A stretch of DNA of 21,023 bases from a virus. The translations under genes were made by a program, and so were the position numbers. Of this stretch, positions 9,003 through 19,717 are shown piece by piece (within the stretch, counting starts at the first letter, position 1; each line of letters opens with the position of its first letter). A model generated the notes under the pieces. That model made no database searches, was not told the DNA's origin, and saw only the letters and a list, made by a program, of their open reading frames with translations. The stretch covers positions 1 to 21,023 of the IMG/VR virus record IMGVR_UViG_3300007513_001216. One strand, written 5' to 3'.

Positions 9003-9897
9003 AAAGATAACCGATTGTATTCTTCCTGAATCAATCAAAAATACCTTTCTAGAATTTGTCGGACAAGGAGAGATTCCTAATCTTCTCCTTGCCGGTGGTT
9101 CTGGTGTAGGTAAAACAACTGTTGCTCGAGCGTTGTGTGAGGAACTTCATTCTGATTATATCATTATAAACGGATCAGAAGAATCTGGCATTGATGTATT
9201 GAGAAACAAAATTAAAACATTTGCTTCAACTGTTTCACTTCAAGGTGGACAAAAAACAGTTATTCTTGATGAAGCAGATTATCTAAATCCATCTTCAACA
9301 CAACCTGCTCTTCGTGGGTTTATTGAGGAGTTTCATAGAAACTGTCGTTTTATTTTTACTTGTAATTATAAAAATAGAATTATAGAACCATTACATTCTC
9401 GATGCTCAGTTATCGAGTTTAAGATAAACGGCAATAAAGCAATACTTGCTTCACAGTTTATGACTCGTATTGAAGGTGTTTTGAAACAAGAAGATATTGG
9501 ATTTGAAGAAGAAGTTGTAGCAGAATTAATTATGAAACATTTTCCAGATTTTAGGAGAGTGTTGAACGAACTACAGCGCTATAGTGTTAGTGGTGTAATT
9601 GATTCTGGTATTCTTGTAAACATTGCTGAAGTCAACATGAAAGAGTTGATGAATCATTTGAAGAAAAAAGAATTTACTCAAGTTCGCAAGTGGGTTGTGG
9701 ACAATATAGATAATGATCCTGTGAAAGTGTTCCGTAGAATATACGAAACTTTATATCAGTATATGAAACCTAATAGTATTCCCGCAGCAGTATTAGTATT
9801 GGGTAAATATCAATATTATTCAGCTTTTGTTGCTGATGCAGAAGTTAATCTATTGGCGTGTTTAACTGAAATCATGTCCCAATGTGAGTTTAAATGA
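8962..9897 (+). CDS. 44: T4 gp44-like clamp-loader ATPase subunit
   Basis: AAA+ ATPase of 311 aa (T4 gp44 is 319) that opens gp45 and loads it on primed DNA. Seen: WVEKYRPKKITDCILPE at the N-terminus, Walker A GGSGVGKTT (45-53), Walker B VILDEADYL (DEAD 103-106), sensor I at FTCN (132-135) and SRC (146-148) carrying the arginine finger, followed by the helical collar. ATG 8962 is preferred over the in-frame GTG at 8944 because GAAGGA lies about 9 nt upstream and the protein then starts like its relatives. In T4 the next gene is 62. Here a DruA-like gene is inserted between them. Confidence 0.95.
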   Translation: MKETYLWVEKYRPKKITDCILPESIKNTFLEFVGQGEIPNLLLAGGSGVGKTTVARALCEELHSDYIIINGSEESGIDVLRNKIKTFASTVSLQGGQKTVILDEADYLNPSSTQPALRGFIEEFHRNCRFIFTCNYKNRIIEPLHSRCSVIEFKINGNKAILASQFMTRIEGVLKQEDIGFEEEVVAELIMKHFPDFRRVLNELQRYSVSGVIDSGILVNIAEVNMKELMNHLKKKEFTQVRKWVVDNIDNDPVKVFRRIYETLYQYMKPNSIPAAVLVLGKYQYYSAFVADAEVNLLACLTEIMSQCEFK

Positions 9898-11135
9898 GAG
9901 AAGATTGGGACGATAGATTAACGGAAGAATATGAATATTGGTTATCAAATAATCCTGTAGATAAAGTTGATTGTCCTAGTGATGATGAACTACGGGCTTT
10001 ATTACTCGACAACCTAGAGTTTGTTCGTTCCATGTCTATAGAGGAATATACCCTCTATCAGAAATGGAATGAAATTCATACAAAATATCCTACTAAAGAA
10101 ACCTCTACACTGTTTGGTGTGGAGAATGTGATGATTGATGCGAAAAAGAAGCACATTACAGATAAAGCAAAGTCTATGGTGTGGCCTGGCGGAGATTATA
10201 CAAAATTACAACCAGAGTTAATTCTTACAGAGCATAATCGTTGGTTGACAGACCAATGGACTGCTGTAAGAACATTTTGTCATACACAAAGAAACAATAA
10301 TAATATTGGTAGAAATTTATTTTATCTTGTAGTAGATAAACCAACTGGACAATATCTAGGTGTAATTTGTATATCGTCAGATTTTATAGACTTAACTCCT
10401 AGAGATAAGTTTGTAGGTTGGACTAGAGAACAACGTAATGAGGGAATGTTAGGACATACAGCAATTGGGTCTAGTATATTACCCACACAACCTTTGGGAT
10501 TTAATTATGTTGGTGGTAAGTTACTTGCTTTGTTATGTTTATCCGATACAGTTCAGAATGATTGGAAGAAAAGATATAAACAAATATTGGTAGGTATGAC
10601 TACAACATCTTTATATGGATCATTTTCTCAGTATCAGAATTTGAAGTATTGGAATAAAAGAGGTAAAACAACAGGCAAAGTTGTATTTGAACCAAACATA
10701 CAGAATTTAAGAGCGTGTAGGAGGTGGACTCATAAGAATCATCCCGAGAAATATTGGGAGTGGTGGCATGCTATGAATGATAAAGGCAATAAGTATAAAA
10801 GAGACCATAAGTTTAGAATGTTGACATTTATATATTCTCAATTAGGTATTAAGAATGTAGAATCAATGCACCAACGTGGTATATACTTTTCCCATCTATA
10901 CGAAAATACAGCAGAATTTCTCCGACAAGAGATAACAGAGTCCATGTTAATTAAAAGATTTCCAACATCTACAGAGCATCTTGTAGATATATGGAAAGAA
11001 AAGTATGCTAGCAAGAGAATTAAATCACTTACAGAAAGTAATAGATTAAATAATAATATACTGTTTTATGATGATTTAATTTATATGAATTGGGAAGAAA
11101 CAAAACAAAAATATTTAAGTGATGTAGGACGATGA
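9894..11135 (+). CDS. DruA/DUF4338-like protein, copy 1 (between gp44 and gp62)
   Basis: 413-aa protein. The central part (about 112-262) follows the layout of the DUF4338 (Druantia protein DruA) family as I know it: NLFYLVVDKPTGQYLGVI, then LTPRDKFVGWTREQRN, then ILPTQPLGFNYVGGKLLALL, then RYKQILVGMTTTSLYG and a final YWNKRGKTTGK. The flanking regions (1-110 and 263-413) are not recognised. It is homologous to the protein at 16205 across the core and also near the C-terminus (ASKRIKSLTESNRL versus ASKRYDSIKEDGRL). The strand order and the closing Tyr-x-x-x-x-x-x-Trp/Tyr-Gly segments are reminiscent of GNAT-fold proteins such as phage Mu Mom, which is inference. It overlaps gp44 and gp62 by 4 nt each, so it is made with the clamp loader. 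DruA's own molecular activity is not established. Confidence 0.6.
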   Translation: MREDWDDRLTEEYEYWLSNNPVDKVDCPSDDELRALLLDNLEFVRSMSIEEYTLYQKWNEIHTKYPTKETSTLFGVENVMIDAKKKHITDKAKSMVWPGGDYTKLQPELILTEHNRWLTDQWTAVRTFCHTQRNNNNIGRNLFYLVVDKPTGQYLGVICISSDFIDLTPRDKFVGWTREQRNEGMLGHTAIGSSILPTQPLGFNYVGGKLLALLCLSDTVQNDWKKRYKQILVGMTTTSLYGSFSQYQNLKYWNKRGKTTGKVVFEPNIQNLRACRRWTHKNHPEKYWEWWHAMNDKGNKYKRDHKFRMLTFIYSQLGIKNVESMHQRGIYFSHLYENTAEFLRQEITESMLIKRFPTSTEHLVDIWKEKYASKRIKSLTESNRLNNNILFYDDLIYMNWEETKQKYLSDVGR

Positions 11136-11545
11136 AGAAAAACGAACCACCTTATCAATTAAAACATTATTTGAATGCTATAAACCATGAAAAAGTAGAT
11201 TTGATGGATGGTGAAGATGAGTTTTGGGAAAAGAAATATCCTGCTTTTATAGTAAATAAGGCATTAGGTTCTTTTGTTGATACTATACTATATGTGAATG
11301 AAATGAACAAGATGCACCACCTCGACAAGCGTCTCCAATTTCATTTTTTTCTAAATAGTATAGGTCGTAAAAAAAGATTTGCTAAATGGTTACGATCAAG
11401 CAAGATCGAAAATCTTGACACAATCAAAGAGTATTATGGATATAATAATGAAAAGGCCAGACAGGCTCTTGAGATACTAAATGATGAGCAAATTGAAGAA
11501 ATAAAAATAATAATAAATCGAGGTGGAAAACATGGAAGAACTTGA
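11132..11545 (+). CDS. 62: T4 gp62-like clamp-loader small subunit
   Basis: Non-ATPase subunit that completes the gp44(4)/gp62(1) clamp loader. At 137 aa it is shorter than T4 gp62 (187) but similar to marine relatives. Recognisable stretches: PYQLKHYLNAINHEKVDLM, FIVNKALGSFVDTI, NEMNKMHHLDKRLQFHFFLN, RKKRFAKWLR and YYGYNNEKARQALEIL, all characteristic of the family. SD AGGA lies 3-4 nt before the ATG. The gene overlaps RegA by 14 nt. In T4, 62 is translated by coupling to 44. Here coupling would have to run through the inserted DruA-like gene. Confidence 0.9.
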   Translation: MKKNEPPYQLKHYLNAINHEKVDLMDGEDEFWEKKYPAFIVNKALGSFVDTILYVNEMNKMHHLDKRLQFHFFLNSIGRKKRFAKWLRSSKIENLDTIKEYYGYNNEKARQALEILNDEQIEEIKIIINRGGKHGRT

Positions 11546-11936
11546 TTGGGACCCAGGCTTAATGCTTGAGGTCACATTATCAGAAGCTGATGATTTCCTT
11601 AAAATCCGAGAAACCTTATCACGCATTGGTGTTGCTTCTAGAAAAGAAAGAATTTTATATCAATCTTGTCACATTCTACATAAGCAGGGCCGATATTTTA
11701 TCGTACATTTTAAAGAATTGTTTGCGTTAGATGGTAAGCCAACCAATTTGACTCAAAATGATATAGAACGAAGAAATACAATAGCTGGTTTATTGGAAGA
11801 TTGGGGACTTGTGAATATTGAGGGGTTGTCAGAACCTAGAGCACCATTATCACAAATAAAGATATTATCTTTTAAAGAAAAAGATGAATGGACTCTAGAA
11901 ACAAAATATAATATAGGAAAGAAACGAGTGGAATAA
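11532..11936 (+). CDS. regA: RegA translational repressor
   Basis: RNA-binding repressor that blocks ribosome access at the start sites of many early phage mRNAs, including clamp, clamp-loader and its own. Conserved stretches are unmistakable: DDFLKIRETLSRIGVASRK, ILYQSCHILHKQGRYFIVHF, RRNTIAGLLEDWGLVNI and ILSFKEKDEWTLETKYNIG. The start is uncertain. ATG 11532 has GAGGTGG upstream (134 aa), while ATG 11562 gives MLEVTL, which aligns directly with the T4 start MIEITL but has a poor SD. If 11532 is used, the protein has a 10-residue N-terminal extension relative to T4 (122 aa). The position between 62 and 43 is as in T4. Confidence 0.95.
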   Translation: MEELDWDPGLMLEVTLSEADDFLKIRETLSRIGVASRKERILYQSCHILHKQGRYFIVHFKELFALDGKPTNLTQNDIERRNTIAGLLEDWGLVNIEGLSEPRAPLSQIKILSFKEKDEWTLETKYNIGKKRVE

Positions 11937-11937
11937 T

Positions 11938-12234
11938 ATGATTAAATTGATAAGAATGAAGTCCGGTGAAGATGTTATCGGCGATGTGACAGAAATAGAT
12001 ACAGGATATATAGTAGAAAGGCCAGCGGTACTCATGCCTATGCCAGCTTCTCAAGGTAGAGAAATGTCAATGGGCATGGTGCCTTGGCAACCATTTAGTA
12101 AAAGTACAAAATTTTCTATTCCAGGAGATTGGGTAGTTACAACTTCAGACCCAGCAGACGATATTGAAAATGGATATAGAACAAATTTTGGTTCAGGCAT
12201 ACAAGTAGCAACAAATAAATTACTCGTAGACTAA
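11938..12234 (+). CDS. Small conserved phage protein with KSGEDVIGDV motif (possibly Sm-like)
   Basis: 98-aa protein starting MIKLIRMKSGEDVIGDVTEI, followed by YIVERPAVLMPMP and a VPWQPFSKSTKFSIP segment. Small proteins with this KLxSGEDVI start are recurrent in T4-like marine phages next to the replication genes, but their function is not known to me. The opening resembles the Sm1 motif (a strand, then G-x-x-V-x-G-x-V), so a small beta-barrel RNA-binding fold is a reasonable guess and no more. An SD-like GAGTGGA sits 6 nt before the ATG. The gap to RegA is 1 nt, so co-expression with that RNA-binding repressor is near certain. Confidence 0.65.
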   Translation: MIKLIRMKSGEDVIGDVTEIDTGYIVERPAVLMPMPASQGREMSMGMVPWQPFSKSTKFSIPGDWVVTTSDPADDIENGYRTNFGSGIQVATNKLLVD

Positions 12235-12242: not shown

Positions 12243-13685
12243 ATGAGTAAATCATTTTCTATGATTCGCAAAGCCAGAGGCACTTTGGTCGAGCAGAAAA
12301 AAGAAGAACAACCCAAAGACGAAAAGTATCGGTTGTTGGTTATTAGTAATAAGCCTGACAACAATCCTTATTTCCATACTGTTCAAAGACTTTTGGATGA
12401 AGCAAAAAAACTTGGCATTCCAGCTTATGTATTGATGGCGGAAATAGCAAATATTGCTGATGGCCAAGTTTGGAACTCTGGAGATGAAAAAAATAAATTT
12501 AATATTTCATCTGATGATACTATTACTATTGTTCGTGGTTCTGTTGCTCGCCGAGACGCATATTTAGACTTAATTTCCCAATTAGAAAAACTAGGTATAG
12601 TAGTTGTAAATAGTAGACAAACAGTACAAATATGTGCTGACAAATATTGGTCATCTTTGCGTTTTGCTGATAATAATATTCCAACTCCAAAAACAGCTTT
12701 AGTACAAAGTGAAGAAACTTTACAAGCATCATTAGATATTATTGGAGAAGAATACCCAATGATATTGAAAACTCTAAAAGGATCAAAAGGTGTAGGAGTG
12801 ATTTTTATTGAATCTAAACGCCAATTAGTTTCTTTGATACAATTACTTTGGAAAGAAGATGATTCTACAGAAATACTTTTACAATCATATATTAAATCAG
12901 ATTTTGATGTAAGAGCATTAGTTTTGAATGGCAAAATTCTGACCGCAATGCGCAGAGATGTTTTAGAGGGAGATTTTAGAAGTAATTATTCACAAGGCGC
13001 TAAAGTTAAAGAATATAAGTTAAGTTCCGAAGAAATGGAAATATGTATTAATGCTGATAAAAGTGTTAATGGCATATACACCGGAGTAGATTTTATTAAG
13101 AATGGTAACGATATTTTTGTATTAGAGGTAAACAGTTCACCTGGCACTGAAGGTATTGAAGAAGCAACTGGTAGAAATTTAATTAAGGAAATATTAGTTC
13201 ATTTTAAAGATAGAAATAATTGGAGATGGCAAGCTACAGAAATTGGGAGATTTGAATTAGTTACTTTAGAAGGTGTTGGTAAAATTGTTGCAAATTTTGA
13301 TACTGGTAATAGTGCAAGATGTATTATTCATGCTGACAAATATGATGTAAAAAACAATATAGTGACATGGGAAATACAAGGGAAAAAATTTAAAAATAAA
13401 CTTATTAAAATGACAAAGTGGGAACGGGGTGCTCTTGCCGCTGAGGTTATTGAAAGACCGCTCATATTATTAGATGTTACATTTGATGGTTCTATATATA
13501 AAGATGTTAAATTTGCTATAGATGATAGAAGTGAAAAGAGAACAAAATGTTTAATGAACCAAGATTTTATGAAACGAAGTAAAGTGATGGTCAATCCATC
13601 TAGATCATTTGTGGCCACATTTGCACCTAACCATGGTCTAAATTCTGATGGAACCTTTAAGAAGAACGCATTTGACTTATTTTGA
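12243..13685 (+). CDS. RimK-type ATP-grasp ligase fused to RimB-like aspartic protease
   Basis: 480-aa two-domain protein. Residues about 28-325 are a RimK-like ATP-grasp ligase: YRLLVISNK start, YPMILKTLKGSKGVGV (171-186, ATP-binding lysine K176 and glycine loop), DVRALVLNGKILTAMRR (222-238) and FVLEVNSSPGTEGIE (292-306) with metal ligands E295 and N297. RimK adds glutamates to the C-terminus of ribosomal protein S6. Residues about 335-457 match the RimB/ATP-dependent zinc-protease family (retropepsin-like): EGVGKIVANFDTGNSARCIIH with the catalytic-type DTG (353-355), then FAIDDRSEKRTKCLMNQDF and VNPSRSF (450-456). The N-terminal 27 residues are charged and variable. Writer and trimmer on one chain is the notable feature. 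The -35 of the gp43 promoter lies in its last codons. Domain assignment is strong; the S6 target is inferred. Confidence 0.85.
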   Translation: MSKSFSMIRKARGTLVEQKKEEQPKDEKYRLLVISNKPDNNPYFHTVQRLLDEAKKLGIPAYVLMAEIANIADGQVWNSGDEKNKFNISSDDTITIVRGSVARRDAYLDLISQLEKLGIVVVNSRQTVQICADKYWSSLRFADNNIPTPKTALVQSEETLQASLDIIGEEYPMILKTLKGSKGVGVIFIESKRQLVSLIQLLWKEDDSTEILLQSYIKSDFDVRALVLNGKILTAMRRDVLEGDFRSNYSQGAKVKEYKLSSEEMEICINADKSVNGIYTGVDFIKNGNDIFVLEVNSSPGTEGIEEATGRNLIKEILVHFKDRNNWRWQATEIGRFELVTLEGVGKIVANFDTGNSARCIIHADKYDVKNNIVTWEIQGKKFKNKLIKMTKWERGALAAEVIERPLILLDVTFDGSIYKDVKFAIDDRSEKRTKCLMNQDFMKRSKVMVNPSRSFVATFAPNHGLNSDGTFKKNAFDLF

Positions 13686-13700
13686 TTTTTATGATATAAT
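13672..13700 (+). promoter_or_regulatory. Strong sigma70-type promoter immediately before gp43 (leaderless)
   Basis: TTGACT (13672-13677, 5 of 6), a 17-nt spacer, and a perfect TATAAT (13695-13700). Only six bases (GGTCCC) separate the -10 from ATG 13707, so the expected +1 is the A of the start codon or within 1-2 nt of it. No Shine-Dalgarno sequence exists in the 25 nt before the ATG. Confidence 0.75.
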
Positions 13701-13706
13701 GGTCCC

Positions 13707-16208
13707 ATGAGTGACTTTTATATTAATGTAATGCAACGGGGTCCTAACCTCCTTGTTCGTGAATTCAAAGACGGTAAACGAGTAAAGCAAAAGATAAAAT
13801 ATGCGCCTACTCTTTACGTTCCTGTAGATAAAAAAACAGAATATACAACTTTAACAGGACAGTATGTAGCTCCTTATAAACTAGATGGCATATATGAGGC
13901 CCGGGCGTTTCTGGAGCAGTACGATGAACAACCTGAATTAGTTTATGGAATGGAGCGTTATCCATTTACTTGGATTGCTGATAATTATCCTGGTATAATT
14001 GATTGGGATATTAAGAAACTTAATATTTTAACTATAGATATTGAAGTTCAATGTGAGAATGGTTTTCCAGACCCACGTGCTGCTGATGAAGAATTATTGT
14101 GTATAACTGTAAAAAATCACTCTAATAAACAGATTTTAGTTTGGGGTATGCAAGAATATGTTGTGCATAATTCCGACGTTCAGTATGTTGAGTGTTATAA
14201 TGAAAAAGAACTGCTGAGAAAGTTTATAGAATTCTGGGAGTATTATGACCCAGATATCATTACAGGTTGGAATACAAAGTTCTTTGATATTCCTTATCTG
14301 TGTAATCGCATAACAAAAATTCTAGGTGAAGATGAGATGAATAGACTATCTCCTTGGAAAGTTGTGCATCCACAACGAACATTTATTGCTAATAGAGAAT
14401 TACAAACGTATGATATTTTAGGAGTATCATCATTAGACTATATAGACTTGTATAGAAAATATACCTATACCAGCCAAGAGTCATATACACTTAATCATAT
14501 TGCATATGTTGAGTTGGGTGAAGCTAAACATGAAAACCCACATGAAACATTTAGAGATTGGTATACAAATGATTATCAATCTTTTGTTGATTATAATATT
14601 CAAGACGTTGAGCTAGTAGATAGATTGGAAGAAAAGATGAAATTGATAGAATTACATCTTACTATGGCTTATGAGGCGAAGATAAATCCACATGATGTGC
14701 ATTCTCAAGTTCGTATGTGGGATGTAATTATCTATAATTATCTTAAAGAGCATAATGTAGTTGTGCCAATGAATTCATCACAAAGAAAAGATGCAAAGTA
14801 TGAAGGTGCTTATGTAAAAGATCCTATTGTGGGATTACATAAGTGGGTAATGTCTTTTGATTTGAATAGTCTGTATCCACATTTGATTATGCAGTATAAT
14901 ATTTCTACAGAAACTATAGCTAAAGAAGGTAATGGTGAAGTTAATGTAGACAAGATGTTAAATAAAGAGGTAGATATTCCTGATGATGGATTTACAGTGA
15001 CTCCAAATGGAGCACGTTTTATAAAAGATAGACAAGGATTTCTTCCCGCTTTAATGGAGAAATTTTATACAGACCGTGTTAAGTTTAAACAATGGACTTT
15101 AGATGCTAAAAATAATTATCAAAAATCAAAAGATTCAAAGTATTTGAATGAGATATCTAAATATAATAACATACAGATGGCTCGTAAGATTGCTTTAAAT
15201 AGTGCTTATGGTGCTATTGGTAATCAGTATTTTAGATATTATGATACGAGATTGGCTACTGCTATAACAACAGCGGGTCAGTTATCTATTCGTTGGATTG
15301 AAAATGCTGTAAATGGTTATTTGAATAAAATATTGGAAACAGAAAATGAAGATTACATCATTGCATCAGATACAGACTCAATATACGTTTCTTTTGACGA
15401 ATTGGTACATAAATCTTTTAATGGTAGAGATAACGTATCAAAGGAAAGAATTGTATCCTTTCTCGATACGGTGGCTAAAGAAAAAATTGAGCCGTTTATT
15501 GATAAATCTTATCGAGACCTTGCCGAATATGTAAAAGCATATGAGCAAAGAATGGAGATGGCTAGAGAAGTCATTGCCGACAAAGGTATCTGGACTGCCA
15601 AGAAAAGATATATTTTAAATGTCTATGACAGTGAAGGTGTACGATATAATGAACCTCAATTAAAAATAATGGGCATTGAGGCTGTAAAGTCATCAACGCC
15701 AGAACCTTGTCGTGATAAAATTAGAGAAGCTATAAAGCTAATACTTAATGAAGATGAAAAATCTCTAAATGAGTTTATTCAAGAATTCAGAAAAGAATTT
15801 ATGAATATGCCTCCAGAAATGATTGCTTATCCTAGGTCATGTAAAGGTTTAAAAAAGTGGGGAGACTCCACAACTGTTTATAAAAAGAGTACACCCATGC
15901 ACGTCAAGGGTGCTTTGATGTATAATTTCTTTTTGAAAAAACATAAGGTTACTCACAAGTATCCTAATATTCAAGAAGGCGATAAAATAAAATTTGTAGA
16001 ATTACGAACTCCAAATATAATTCAAACAAATGTTGTATCGTTTATGACAAGATTACCTAGAGAGTTTGATTTGAATTCAGCAATAAATTATGATGTTATG
16101 TTTGACAAAAGTTTTGTCGAACCGTTGACTTTTATTCTTGACCAAATACAATGGCAAGTAGATAGAAGTTATGGCACACAACGAACACTAGAAGCGTTAT
16201 TTGGATGA
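13707..16208 (+). CDS. 43: T4 gp43-like family B DNA polymerase
   Basis: Replicative polymerase with proofreading, 833 aa (T4 898; marine relatives about 830). Exonuclease motifs: ExoI TIDIEV (D111, E113), ExoII GWNTKFFDIPYL (D194) and ExoIII YNIQD (296-300, D300). Linker KYEGAYV (364-370). Polymerase motifs: A FDLNSLYPHL (D385), B KIALNSAYG (494-502) and C SDTDSIY (554-560, DTD 555-557). All catalytic residues are intact. The C-terminus ends RTLEALFG, a short hydrophobic peptide of the sort that docks gp43 on the gp45 clamp. The start is fixed by the promoter: ATG 13707 follows the -10 by six bases and has no SD, so the mRNA made here would be leaderless. It overlaps the next gene by 4 nt. 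Confidence 0.97.
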   Translation: MSDFYINVMQRGPNLLVREFKDGKRVKQKIKYAPTLYVPVDKKTEYTTLTGQYVAPYKLDGIYEARAFLEQYDEQPELVYGMERYPFTWIADNYPGIIDWDIKKLNILTIDIEVQCENGFPDPRAADEELLCITVKNHSNKQILVWGMQEYVVHNSDVQYVECYNEKELLRKFIEFWEYYDPDIITGWNTKFFDIPYLCNRITKILGEDEMNRLSPWKVVHPQRTFIANRELQTYDILGVSSLDYIDLYRKYTYTSQESYTLNHIAYVELGEAKHENPHETFRDWYTNDYQSFVDYNIQDVELVDRLEEKMKLIELHLTMAYEAKINPHDVHSQVRMWDVIIYNYLKEHNVVVPMNSSQRKDAKYEGAYVKDPIVGLHKWVMSFDLNSLYPHLIMQYNISTETIAKEGNGEVNVDKMLNKEVDIPDDGFTVTPNGARFIKDRQGFLPALMEKFYTDRVKFKQWTLDAKNNYQKSKDSKYLNEISKYNNIQMARKIALNSAYGAIGNQYFRYYDTRLATAITTAGQLSIRWIENAVNGYLNKILETENEDYIIASDTDSIYVSFDELVHKSFNGRDNVSKERIVSFLDTVAKEKIEPFIDKSYRDLAEYVKAYEQRMEMAREVIADKGIWTAKKRYILNVYDSEGVRYNEPQLKIMGIEAVKSSTPEPCRDKIREAIKLILNEDEKSLNEFIQEFRKEFMNMPPEMIAYPRSCKGLKKWGDSTTVYKKSTPMHVKGALMYNFFLKKHKVTHKYPNIQEGDKIKFVELRTPNIIQTNVVSFMTRLPREFDLNSAINYDVMFDKSFVEPLTFILDQIQWQVDRSYGTQRTLEALFG
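16125..16152 (+). promoter_or_regulatory. Possible internal promoter near the 3' end of gp43
   Basis: TTGACT (16125-16130), a 16-nt spacer, TACAAT (16147-16152, 5 of 6). It would start RNA near 16159 and feed the DruA-like/glycosyltransferase block from 16205. It is inside coding sequence of an AT-rich genome, so chance is a real alternative. Confidence 0.3.
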
Positions 16209-17353
16209 TATTAAGTGAAAAAGAAACATATTGGGCAGCTGATAAACTAGTAAATTTTTTCAACAGTTTTAATCGTATAGATGAATACTTTAGAAAAAGA
16301 AAAATAGAGCGAATCAAAAAATTCCCAACCCCACTTTTCGGTATGGGTCCTGAAGATGATTTATTTCAAGCTTGGGACATGCACCCCGAAGATATGGAAT
16401 TTGAAGTAGTTACAAGAACTAGAGAAGTTTTTGAGAATCTATTGGAGATGACTGCTAGCTTTACTCCAGATGATCCTCCCGCACGTGTTACTAAAATCTG
16501 TGTACAAGAAAAGAACACTGGAAAGATTTGTGGGTTTATTAAATTAGCATCACCTCTTATTAATGCCAAGCCAAGAAATGATTGGTTGGGTCGTCCATTG
16601 AATGGACAAGATAAAGCAGAGATGAGCAAATTCAATGATTCTACTATCATGGGATTTGTTATAGTACCAGCACAGCCATTTGGGTTTAATTATCTAGGCG
16701 GTAAGTTGATGGCTGCTATTTGTTGTTCACATGAAATTAGACGAAGAATGAATAAAAAGTATGGTGGTCCATTTTGTTTGTTCGAGACTACCTCGCTTTA
16801 TGGAAATATAAAAGGTATGTCCATGTATGATGGTATGAGACCTTTTCTAAAATATAGAGGCGATACTTTATCAAAATTGTTTTTAAATTTGGACGATGAT
16901 GTATATTTTGAAATACGAGATTGGTTTTATGAAAAGAATGGTGGTAAACCTTTAATACCTATGACTACTGAAGCAGGAACTCCTATTACAGGTCATAAGT
17001 TACGAACTCAAAGTAAAATCATAAGTATAATTACTAATTCACTTAAACATCATAACCAAGAAGCATATCAAAAATTTATGGAGTTTAAAAAGAGCGCAGG
17101 CGAAATAACTACACAGAAACGATTTTATAATTCTACATATGGGTTTTCTAATAGTCGAGAGTTTTTATTAGGAGAAACAGAAACGCTTATTAAGAGTGAT
17201 ACCTATGACAAATACGAGTTAGATAATATAGTAAAGTGGTGGAAGAAAAAAGCAAGTAAACGATATGACTCCATAAAAGAAGATGGAAGATTACGGAGAG
17301 AAATTGAAGTTTGGAAACGTGATAACATAGATACATTGGATATTATACGATGA
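16205..17353 (+). CDS. DruA/DUF4338-like protein, copy 2 (after gp43)
   Basis: 382-aa paralogue of the protein at 9894. Shared core (about 97-225): VTKICVQEKNTGKICGFIK, KPRNDWLGRP, FVIVPAQPFGFNYLGGKLMA (152-171), CLFETTSLYGNIKGMS (191-206), and FLKYRGDTLSK where copy 1 has YWNKRGKTTGK. The C-terminal KKKASKRYDSIKEDGRLRRE also matches copy 1. It differs by lacking the long N-terminal region and by carrying an insertion after LGRP (NGQDKAEMSKFNDS), so the two have diverged and may have separate tasks. As in copy 1, the layout follows DruA of the Druantia defence systems as I know that family, whose activity is unestablished. It overlaps gp43 by 4 nt and the glycosyltransferase by 4 nt. A DNA-related role is inferred from both neighbours. 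Confidence 0.58.
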   Translation: MILSEKETYWAADKLVNFFNSFNRIDEYFRKRKIERIKKFPTPLFGMGPEDDLFQAWDMHPEDMEFEVVTRTREVFENLLEMTASFTPDDPPARVTKICVQEKNTGKICGFIKLASPLINAKPRNDWLGRPLNGQDKAEMSKFNDSTIMGFVIVPAQPFGFNYLGGKLMAAICCSHEIRRRMNKKYGGPFCLFETTSLYGNIKGMSMYDGMRPFLKYRGDTLSKLFLNLDDDVYFEIRDWFYEKNGGKPLIPMTTEAGTPITGHKLRTQSKIISIITNSLKHHNQEAYQKFMEFKKSAGEITTQKRFYNSTYGFSNSREFLLGETETLIKSDTYDKYELDNIVKWWKKKASKRYDSIKEDGRLRREIEVWKRDNIDTLDIIR

Positions 17354-18333: not shown

Positions 18334-18911
18334 GCACAGCAAAGAAATTAAATAGAGATAAGGGATTTTGGCAAGGCGAAACTCCAGGACATCTCAACAG
18401 TAAAGAACTACAGAAATCCTTAATAGAATTTTGTCAAAATGAAAAAGTAAAGTCGGTAGTAGATTTTGGTTGTGGTGACGCATCATACATTAAAAAAATT
18501 TATAATAGTTGTGAAGATTTAGAATATCTTAATGCGTTTGATGGTAACCCAAATGTGAAAAAGATTACTGATGGGTTTGCTGAACAACAAGATTTATCAA
18601 TACCATTTGATTTAGGTCGTAAGTATGATTTGGTTTTGTCCCTTGAGGTTGCCGAACATATACCTAAACAACACGAATCTGTTTATACAAATAATTTAGT
18701 GAATCATGTTGATAAACATTTGATTATTAGTTGGGCTACAGTAGGACAAAAGGGAATAGGTCATGTTAATTGCCAAAATAATGATTACGTTATTGACTTG
18801 TTTTCTAATTTTGGTTTGTCATATCAAAAAGAAACATCTCTACGGTTTAGAGATTCTATTGGTAGAAGTTGTAAATGGTTCAAAAACACAATAATGTATT
18901 TTAAAAAATGA
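18324..18911 (+). CDS. Class I SAM-dependent methyltransferase
   Basis: 195-aa Rossmann-fold methyltransferase. Seen: motif I VVDFGCGDASY (45-55), FDGNP (72-76) at the acidic SAM-ribose strand, DLSIPFD (90-96), motif IV-like DLVLSLEVAEHIP (102-114), then HLIISWA and GQKGIGHVNCQNNDYVI (141-157). The last segment is typical of small methyltransferases found in sugar and glycan clusters rather than of DNA C5 or N6 methylases, which would carry PC or DPPY motifs that are absent here. Two in-frame starts are possible (18324 and 18330). The context between two glycosyltransferases suggests it methylates a sugar or a related adduct (inference). Confidence 0.85.
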   Translation: MFMSTAKKLNRDKGFWQGETPGHLNSKELQKSLIEFCQNEKVKSVVDFGCGDASYIKKIYNSCEDLEYLNAFDGNPNVKKITDGFAEQQDLSIPFDLGRKYDLVLSLEVAEHIPKQHESVYTNNLVNHVDKHLIISWATVGQKGIGHVNCQNNDYVIDLFSNFGLSYQKETSLRFRDSIGRSCKWFKNTIMYFKK

Positions 18912-19717
18912 AGATATATATTCCAACATTAGGTAGAGTTGATAATCAAATCACTTTTGACAATTTGCCAGATAAACATAAAGAGCAAGTTGTATTTGTT
19001 GTGCAGGAACACGAACGACCAAAACATAAAAGAGATGTAGAATACATGGTTGTTGGTGACAACATAGGACTTTCAGAAACACGCCGACAGATTTTTTATA
19101 CAGTTGGTAAGAGTAGATTTTCTTTGTATGATGATGACTTGGTATTCTATAGAAGAAACATAAAATACACAACCGGTTCATCTGATATGGAAGGTTCTAA
19201 AAGAAAGATGACCGAATCTGACTTTGATGAAATGTATGATACTTTCAATGGTTGGTTGGATGATGGGTACATACAATGCGGACATAGAGAAACATCATTA
19301 CCACCACTAGGAAAACTGCACCATGACAACGTGGGTATGTTTTCTGGTTTCACAATGAATGGTGAATTGATATCAAAGTTTATTGATGATGTGGATTGGA
19401 TTTACACCTATGTTGGACAAGATAGTATGTGGCAGATAGAGTTTCTTACTAGAGGATATAGGATAAGAATGTCTGATATCTTTACACAAAAATCTGAGTG
19501 GTGGCAAGAAGGTGGTTGTTCTAATTACCGTGATGCTGATATGTATAATAATGAACATAGAAAACTAGTCACAAAATATCCAGAGTTTGTTAAAGAATCT
19601 GGATCAGTAACAAGAAAGAATATAGGAGAGATTATTAAGTTGAAGTATCGTTGGAGAGATGCTTACAAATATGGTCAGAGAAATAGTTTAGAAGGTTTTT
19701 TTGAAGAAACTAAATAG
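18908..19717 (+). CDS. TAGT-like (TET-associated) GT-A glycosyltransferase
   Basis: 269-aa glycosyltransferase-like protein whose landmarks match the TAGT family described next to phage TET/JBP base hydroxylases: IYIPTLGR (3-10), VVFVVQEHE (28-36), NIGLSETRRQIF (52-63), SLYDDDLVFYRR (72-83, with the acidic D-D-D metal/nucleotide motif), then TYVGQDSMWQIEFLTRGY and WWQEGGCSNYRD near the C-terminal third. Known TAGT proteins transfer sugars to hydroxylated bases in phage DNA. Here no TET/JBP-type oxygenase is visible within the window, only 2OG oxygenases of other subfamilies. It overlaps the methyltransferase by 4 nt and closes the modification block. The alternative is a glycan glycosyltransferase. 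Family call moderately strong; substrate unproven. Confidence 0.65.
   Translation: MKIYIPTLGRVDNQITFDNLPDKHKEQVVFVVQEHERPKHKRDVEYMVVGDNIGLSETRRQIFYTVGKSRFSLYDDDLVFYRRNIKYTTGSSDMEGSKRKMTESDFDEMYDTFNGWLDDGYIQCGHRETSLPPLGKLHHDNVGMFSGFTMNGELISKFIDDVDWIYTYVGQDSMWQIEFLTRGYRIRMSDIFTQKSEWWQEGGCSNYRDADMYNNEHRKLVTKYPEFVKESGSVTRKNIGEIIKLKYRWRDAYKYGQRNSLEGFFEETK
19709..19716 (+). promoter_or_regulatory. Possible late promoter element (ACTAAATA), 5 nt before the protease start
   Basis: The same octamer and the same 5-nt gap to the ATG as at 12230. The predicted +1 coincides with A of ATG 19722, and no SD precedes that ATG. A late promoter would suit a protease acting at the end of infection. It overlaps the TAGT stop codon in a different frame register from the first copy, so shared coding does not explain the match. 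Confidence 0.33.

What the first reader, a model, noticed from the sequence alone, without database searches (positions are those of the whole stretch)
12243..13685. Natural fusion of RimK-type ligase and RimB-type protease in a phage
RimK adds glutamate residues to ribosomal protein S6 and RimB is the retropepsin-like protease that trims them. In bacteria they are separate proteins of the RimABK system. Here both lie on one 480-aa chain with intact key motifs (K176, E295 and N297 in the ligase; DTG 353-355 in the protease). The gene is in the early replication block beside the RNA-binding repressor RegA and a possible Sm-like protein. This suggests a viral device that resets the host ribosome's modification state during takeover.
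Basis: partly seen in the sequence, partly recalled or inferred. Interest (0 to 1): 0.74.

Follow-up and report, generated by a model that had tools for sequence, protein, structure and literature searches.

The report
Phage-packaged RimK–RimB glutamate-tail enzyme
A marine T4-like phage carries a gene that joins an enzyme adding glutamate tails to proteins with a protease that trims them; the fusion itself was already reported, but its relatives carry a head-targeting tag and swappable bodies, which suggests the enzyme is packed in the virus particle and injected to modify the host at the start of infection.

Summary
Window 12243-13685 encodes a 480-aa RimK ATP-grasp ligase followed by a RimB-type retropepsin-like domain. 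Both folds and the key residues are supported, and the gene lies between a RegA/Sm-like pair and gp43. The fusion is not new. Monier et al. 2008 described marine T4-like contigs with rimK beside regA and a C-terminal DUF785 (= PF05618). Little et al. 2025 purified a bacterial RimBK hybrid, proteolytically active but without S6 glutamylation. So 'separate proteins in bacteria' is wrong, and S6 as target is untested.

What appears new: (1) 78 of 89 phage relatives carry an N-terminal tag (F-x-x-[FY]-[IL]-x-E-A) matching the T4 capsid-targeting leader MKTYQEFIAE at the residues shown by genetics to target (4, 7) and be processed (8, 10); other ORFs at these loci have it in 9 of 586. (2) The YerA41 homologue was found in phage particles by mass spectrometry. 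(3) In near-identical phages (flanks about 99%) the enzyme body is swapped right after the leader, down to 30% identity, with or without RimB. The window's own leader is a variant (MSKSFSMIRKARGTLVE).

Best reading: a head-packaged, injected glutamate-tail-editing enzyme, Alt-like in logic, substrate unproven.

The parts
12243..13685 (+). RimK-RimB fusion gene, 480 aa
12243..12293 (+). N-terminal leader MSKSFSMIRKARGTLVE (residues 1-17), putative variant of a capsid-targeting/propeptide sequence; disordered in the model
   Evidence: Leader conserved in 16 contigs, all RimK homologues, ending in LxE; in near-identical phages the body changes right after it; pLDDT 32-37 for residues 1-20
12639..13196 (+). 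RimK-like ATP-grasp domain (residues 133-318); K176 at 12768-12770, E295 at 13125-13127, N297 at 13131-13133
   Evidence: PF08443 1.2e-40; invariant residues; fold
13245..13619 (+). RimB-type retropepsin-like domain (residues 335-459)
   Evidence: PF05618; profile match to 9g59/9g58/2pma; fold
13299..13307 (+). DTG active-site motif, residues 353-355
   Evidence: invariant in 43 aligned relatives
13455..13529 (+). stretch from R405 to R429, which align with the two arginines (R114, R137 of RloA) modelled to contact polyglutamate
   Evidence: R405 invariant, R429 at least 90%; alignment to 9g58; published contacts; the residue mapping is my inference
11523..11936 (+). RegA translational repressor (a later ATG at 11532 is the likelier start)
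   Evidence: phrog_242, 1.4e-58; start context
11938..12234 (+). Sm-like protein, homologue of PDB 3BY7
   Evidence: 3e-13
11132..11545 (+). clamp-loader small subunit (gp62-like)
   Evidence: phrog_225, 1.3e-41
13707..16208 (+). DNA polymerase gp43
   Evidence: phrog_262, 1081 bits
13672..13700 (+). promoter-like site for gp43 (TTGACT-17-TATAAT, extended -10) whose -35 box lies in the last codons of the fusion gene
   Evidence: 11 of 12 consensus matches; consensus match only

Best explanation
The gene makes a bifunctional enzyme of T4-like marine phages: a RimK-family ATP-grasp ligase that adds glutamates to a protein C-terminus (or makes poly-alpha-glutamate) and, on the same chain, a RimB-type aspartic protease that cuts glutamate tails. 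In this phage family the enzyme is most likely packed into the head through a cleavable N-terminal leader of the T4 internal-protein type, injected with the DNA, and acts on a host target at the very start of infection, like T4 Alt in logic. Shown by sequence and models: both domains, the invariant active-site residues, the leader in most relatives, its match to experimentally mapped T4 residues, particle association of one homologue (published mass spectrometry), and swapping of bodies behind a constant leader. Inferred: packaging in this phage, enzymatic activity of both domains, injection. Open: the substrate; host S6 is the first candidate but not demonstrated.
For: Domains and residues. 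Leader: 90 of 110 sequences have F-x-x-aromatic/aliphatic-x-E near the N-terminus and 15 more the FSM[IV]RKAR variant; 78 of 89 RimK ORFs against 9 of 586 other ORFs of at least 100 aa in the same loci; in 34 non-redundant sequences position 4 is F in all, position 7 F/Y, position 8 I/L, position 10 E in all, and positions not demanded by the search pattern (6 = E/S/D, 9 = T/S/A, 11 = A) also resemble T4. T4 IPII and IPIII leaders MKTYQEFIAE are annotated as removed after residue 10; T4 genetics puts targeting at residues 4 and 7 and processing at 8 and 10 (PMC9026906). The DNA pattern for M-x-x-[FY]-x-E-F-I-[AT]-E-A finds almost only ORF N-termini with unrelated bodies, including T4 internal head proteins and several RimK proteins. 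YerA41 homologue (g112, marked as detected in particles; PMC7354516 Table 3). Mosig, the closest isolate, has a prohead protease and a capsid protein with a T4-like FLSE/A site. Stand-alone cyanophage RimKs without RimB lack the leader. Body swapping.
Against: The window protein itself has a variant leader without F-x-x-F-I-x-E; only an LxE site fits the cleavage logo. No virion proteome exists for this phage or for a close relative. The YerA41 homologue is only 36% identical, has no clear leader of this type, and its particle list of 63 proteins includes likely co-purified enzymes. No T4-type late promoter (NATAAATA) lies within 150 nt upstream in 80 of 82 loci, although the T4 internal proteins also lie in an early region. 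Substrate and activity untested; the published bacterial hybrid gave no RpsF glutamylation.
Confidence: 0.6

Rival explanations
1. The enzyme is made early inside the infected cell, is not packaged, and resets glutamylation of host ribosomal protein S6 to favour phage translation.
For: Gene sits between regA and gp43 in the replication/translation-control block; RimK and RimB act on S6 in Pseudomonas; Mosig also encodes S21; no late promoter nearby.
Against: Does not explain the T4-type leader in 78 of 89 relatives, the particle association in YerA41 or body swapping behind a constant leader. S6-specific model not reached.
Confidence: 0.25
2. The enzyme acts on a substrate other than S6, such as another host protein, a defence protein, a phage head protein, or free poly-alpha-glutamate.
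For: The bacterial RimBK hybrid was a protease but did not glutamylate the RpsF tested; RimK relatives act on cofactors in other organisms (discussion); bodies vary down to 30% identity within one phage population, as expected of a target or arms-race function rather than of a conserved ribosomal target; one locus carries a tagged PGA_cap protein next to the gene.
Against: No direct evidence for any alternative substrate; RimK structures, including the RpsF complex, are the closest folds.
Confidence: 0.45
3. The RimB domain is regulatory rather than a working protease: it stimulates the ligase, as RimB does for RimK, and can be lost.
For: RimB stimulates RimK; alleles without RimB occur in otherwise near-identical phages (L023, L022, L037) and in Melnitz.
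Against: DTG and the arginines aligned to polyglutamate contacts are invariant or nearly so, which a purely structural domain would not need.
Confidence: 0.2
4. The apparent body swapping comes from chimeric metagenome assemblies joined at a shared identical stretch.
For: All swapped contigs are short metagenome contigs sharing identical DNA upstream, the situation in which assemblers make false joins.
Against: Several pairs agree at about 99% on both sides of different bodies (L032 with L033, L023, L028), which needs two false joins at the gene's two ends; body types recur in separate samples (types A, B and D in three or four contigs each).
Confidence: 0.15

Closest known systems
Marine phage RimK with C-terminal DUF785 (Monier et al. 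2008, PMC2530865)
   Same: Same gene kind, same neighbourhood (regA, 3BY7-like protein, T4-like genes), same domain order.
   Different: That paper gave no leader, no packaging, no body swapping, and DUF785 was then of unknown function.
RimBK hybrid of Desulfotalea psychrophila and others (Little et al. 2025, PMC11957791)
   Same: RimB and RimK domains on one chain; protease part cleaves polyglutamylated RpsF.
   Different: Bacterial hybrid has RimB at the N-terminus; phage protein has RimB at the C-terminus and an extra N-terminal leader. No RpsF glutamylation was seen with the hybrid.
Pelagibacter phage Mosig QOI69969-type gene 'putative glutathione synthetase' (QOI68969.1)
   Same: 45% identity over both domains, same place between regA and gp43, leader FKNYLEEA.
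   Different: Annotated as glutathione synthetase; no Sm-like gene between; no functional data.
Yersinia phage YerA41 g112 / QSM00767.1
   Same: 36% identity over both domains; found in phage particles.
   Different: Different phage group and gene neighbourhood (ribonucleotide reductase); no clear T4-type leader.
T4 internal proteins IPII/IPIII and Alt
   Same: Ten-residue leader with matching key residues; constant leader with divergent bodies; host-modifying enzyme in the case of Alt.
   Different: Unrelated bodies; packaging proven in T4 only.

Membership tests
RimK-family alpha-L-glutamate ligases | RimK ATP-grasp domain above curated cut-offs | tested here: met
   PF08443 139.6 bits against 21; TIGR00768 172.9 against 143.4
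RimK-family alpha-L-glutamate ligases | ATP/metal residues K176, E295, N297 conserved | tested here: met
   invariant in 43 sequences
S6-specific RimK (PRK10446 equivalog) | score above the equivalog cut-off | tested here: not met
   101.5 against 331 bits
S6-specific RimK (PRK10446 equivalog) | adds glutamates to S6 | not testable with these tools
   needs an assay
RimB / PF05618 retropepsin-like peptidases | PF05618 gathering score | tested here: inconclusive
   window protein 22.2 bits against 27; 38 of 43 relatives match at E<1e-3, best 4.8e-10
RimB / PF05618 retropepsin-like peptidases | DTG active-site motif | tested here: met
   residues 353-355, invariant
RimB / PF05618 retropepsin-like peptidases | retropepsin-like fold | tested here: met
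   2pma Z 16.0, rmsd 2.1, 120 aligned; XMRV protease Z 9.2, rmsd 2.6, 99 aligned
RimB / PF05618 retropepsin-like peptidases | homodimer with glutamate-tail cleavage | not testable with these tools
   needs biochemistry
bacterial RimBK hybrid (Little et al. 2025) | RimB at the N-terminus of RimK | tested here: not met
   order is RimK then RimB
T4-type capsid-targeted internal proteins | leader with aromatic at 4 and 7, I/L at 8, E at 10, in the relatives | tested here: met
   78 of 89 RimK ORFs against 9 of 586 other ORFs
T4-type capsid-targeted internal proteins | the same leader in the window protein | tested here: inconclusive
   variant MSKSFSMIRKARGTLVE with an LxE site but no F-x-x-F-I-x-E
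T4-type capsid-targeted internal proteins | prohead protease of the T4 type in the phage | tested here: inconclusive
   present in the relative Mosig; outside this 21-kb fragment for the window phage
T4-type capsid-targeted internal proteins | present in the virion and injected | not testable with these tools
   published only for the distant YerA41 homologue: particle-associated

The most novel reading that the evidence does not exclude
Marine T4-like phages carry a hypervariable locus in which a constant head-targeting leader is joined to interchangeable RimK-type ligase bodies, with or without a RimB protease; the enzymes are injected with the DNA and edit glutamate tails on a host target under an arms race, making this a virion-delivered polyglutamylation effector of abundant ocean phages.
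Probability: 0.45. Interest if true: 0.82.

Novelty: new variant of a known kind. Interest (0 to 1): 0.6.

Why it matters
If true, it adds protein glutamylation to the short list of modifications that phages deliver with their DNA (T4 Alt does ADP-ribosylation), in one of the most abundant groups of ocean viruses. At least 588 contigs of the viral collection encode a relative. It gives a testable purpose to a gene seen in 2008 and never followed up, and it turns the leader into a way to list candidate injected effectors in marine T4-like phages.

Tried and rejected
Cellular origin: two scans of species genomes. The RimB domain alone found nothing; the full alignment found three MAG contigs, two of which carry clear T4-like phage genes (gp62, regA, gp43) and so look like phage sequence binned with archaea; no source of the gene was found. 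Late promoter upstream of the gene: none beyond background (2 of 82 loci against 9 of 492 control windows). A leader-like N-terminus in other Mosig proteins: the strict pattern hits the RimK-RimB gene only, so in that phage it is not a general head-protein mark. The window-type leader on non-RimK proteins: 16 hits with one pattern, all RimK homologues; 14 with a second pattern, of which 13 were the same loci and one (L158) was not examined. The host's S6 C-terminus and own rimK could not be checked: no SAR11 genome handle could be reached. Papers linking RimK to virions or to capsid-targeting in marine phages: none found in the held library, which is open-access only.

Full report
What is there. 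Window 12243-13685 (+) is an open frame of 480 aa. Residues 133-318 are a RimK ATP-grasp domain (PF08443, 1.2e-40) and the chain passes the RimK subfamily model TIGR00768 (172.9 against 143.4 bits) but not the S6-specific PRK10446 model (101.5 against 331). Residues 335-459 match PF05618, the RimB family, at 22.2 bits, under the gathering score of 27. In 43 relatives the match is good in 38, best 4.8e-10. A profile of the domain finds three solved PF05618 structures (9g59 9.1e-10, 9g58 9.9e-7, 2pma 3.0e-6). A model of the domain (pLDDT 83.9) aligns to 2pma with Z 16.0, rmsd 2.1, 120 residues, and to retroviral proteases with Z about 8 to 9 (for example XMRV 9.2, 2.6 A, 99 residues). The whole-chain model (pLDDT 79.4) is closest to RimK structures, one of them in complex with RpsF. 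K176, E295, N297 and D353-T354-G355 are invariant across 43 sequences.

Surroundings. The genes before it are gp62-like (phrog_225), RegA (phrog_242) and a 98-aa Sm-like protein related to PDB 3BY7; after it comes gp43. The window is a 21,023-base IMG/VR virus record. The nearest isolate, Pelagibacter phage Mosig, has the same order and a 45% identical protein, annotated as glutathione synthetase. A strong promoter-like site for gp43 has its -35 box in the last codons of the fusion gene.

What was known. Monier et al. 2008 (PMC2530865) reported marine contigs with rimK beside regA, several with a C-terminal DUF785 (PF05618), the 3BY7-like neighbour, and DUF785-RimK proteins in Synechococcus (N-terminal) and haloarchaea (C-terminal). 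Little et al. 2025 (PMC11957791) showed RimB to be a retropepsin-like protease, found RimBK hybrids in 12% of rim-bearing accessions, and showed that the Desulfotalea hybrid cleaves polyglutamylated RpsF but did not glutamylate the RpsF tested. So the fusion, in phages and in bacteria, is already known, and S6 is not an established substrate for fusions.

The leader. Aligning relatives showed N-termini such as MEKFSEFITEA, MENFKSFITEE and MQVQPFKNYLEEA. T4 IPII and IPIII begin MKTYQEFIAE, annotated as removed after residue 10. T4 genetics places targeting at residues 4 and 7 and processing at 8 and 10 (PMC9026906). Of 110 phage RimK sequences, 90 have the F-x-x-[FYLIM]-[ILVMF]-x-E pattern at the N-terminus and 15 the variant FSM[IV]RKAR leader; of the other five, three (L016, L028, L177) lack their N-terminus and two have near-misses (FKSFTTE, FKETLSE). 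At 90 loci 78 of 89 RimK frames have the tag, against 9 of 586 other frames of at least 100 aa; the internal background is about 0.5% per 16 starts. In 34 sequences under 85% identical, position 4 is F in all, 7 is F or Y, 8 is I or L, 10 is E in all (partly required by the pattern); position 6 is E, S or D in 33, position 9 is T, S or A in 31, and A is the commonest residue at 11 (21 of 34), none of which the pattern required. Stand-alone RimKs of cyanophages S-RIM32, S-RIM12 and S-CAM8 lack it. Mosig has a prohead protease, and its capsid protein has FLSE/A where T4 gp23, from my memory, has FLTE/A.

Particle evidence. The YerA41 homologue is the 'ribosomal protein modification protein' g112, marked as identified by LC-MS/MS of purified particles (PMC7354516), and is annotated as structural protein in GenBank. 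The gene-name match rests on its place after the ribonucleotide reductase genes. That list of 63 proteins includes many enzymes, so co-purification is possible.

The window's leader. The window protein starts MSKSFSMIRKARGTLVE. A search for FSM[IV]RKARG found 16 contigs, all RimK homologues, all ending the leader in LxE. The three more distant ones (L031, L035, L036) keep the amino acids while differing at synonymous sites. This looks like a cleavable leader but is not the mapped T4 type, so for the window itself packaging is an inference from its family.

Body swapping. Thirteen of the 16 contigs share the same 60 bases upstream and the leader exactly. Pairs agree at 98.6-100% upstream, and for L032 with L033, L023 and L028 also at about 99.5% downstream into gp43. 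Between them lie different RimK bodies, 30-51% identical to the window protein, of at least five types, one type (L022, L023, L037) without RimB. Identity is lost just after the leader and returns just after the stop codon. Catalytic residues stay. Single crossovers explain some cases (L029, L025). This is the pattern described for T4 internal proteins: constant leader, divergent bodies, linked by the authors to an arms race. Chimeric assembly is possible but needs two joins per case in several samples.

Mechanism. I think the most likely course is: the ligase-protease is made early, enters the prohead core through its leader, the prohead protease removes the leader after the E, the enzyme leaves with the DNA, and in the new cell it adds and trims glutamates on a host protein. 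The steps shown are the domains, residues, leader statistics, and one published particle finding. Two arginines, R405 and R429, align with RloA R114 and R137, modelled to hold polyglutamate (mapping by me), which fits cleavage of glutamate tails. S6 is one candidate; host defence proteins, a phage head protein or poly-glutamate itself are others.

Scores. Fusion alone would rate low because it is known. The leader, the particle evidence and the swapping raise it. I rate interest 0.6 and call it a new variant of a known kind: a RimK-RimB body used as a T4-type internal protein.

Noticed in passing
L168:3212-4816: Between regA and rimK-rimB of one contig lies a 535-aa PGA_cap protein (PF09587, 1.4e-64) with its own leader-like N-terminus MKTFKSFLNE, a second candidate packaged protein at this locus.
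   Followed up: partly
window 9894-11135 and 16205-17353: Two genes of a DruA-like type flank the replication block; the first matches PF14236 at 3.3e-20 (Druantia protein DruA), the second looks similar by eye. Mosig has a DUF4338 gene too.
   Followed up: no
many loci (e.g. L060:7774-8238, L085:6724-7383): Many marine phage proteins with the T4-type leader carry a YHGTS-like N-terminal motif that resembles ADP-ribosyltransferases by eye; they matched no PHROG or Pfam family and may be Alt-like injected enzymes.
   Followed up: partly
window 13672-13700: The 3' end of the fusion gene doubles as the -35 region of a strong promoter-like site for gp43; other alleles keep a TATAAT-like box there, some with TTGACA, so body swaps may need to preserve it.
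   Followed up: partly
L237, L238, L239: Three genome-collection MAG contigs (labelled Thaumarchaeota, Izimaplasma, Pacearchaeota) encode relatives; L237 and L239 carry gp62, regA and gp43 beside the gene and are probably misbinned phage.
   Followed up: partly
window 18908-19717: Gene matching the TET-associated glycosyltransferase family (PF20691, 2.3e-8), a hint of modified phage DNA bases.
   Followed up: no
L030 and L028, downstream of rimK: These two contigs have about 1.5 kb of extra sequence between the rimK body and gp43 that the other near-identical phages lack.
   Followed up: no
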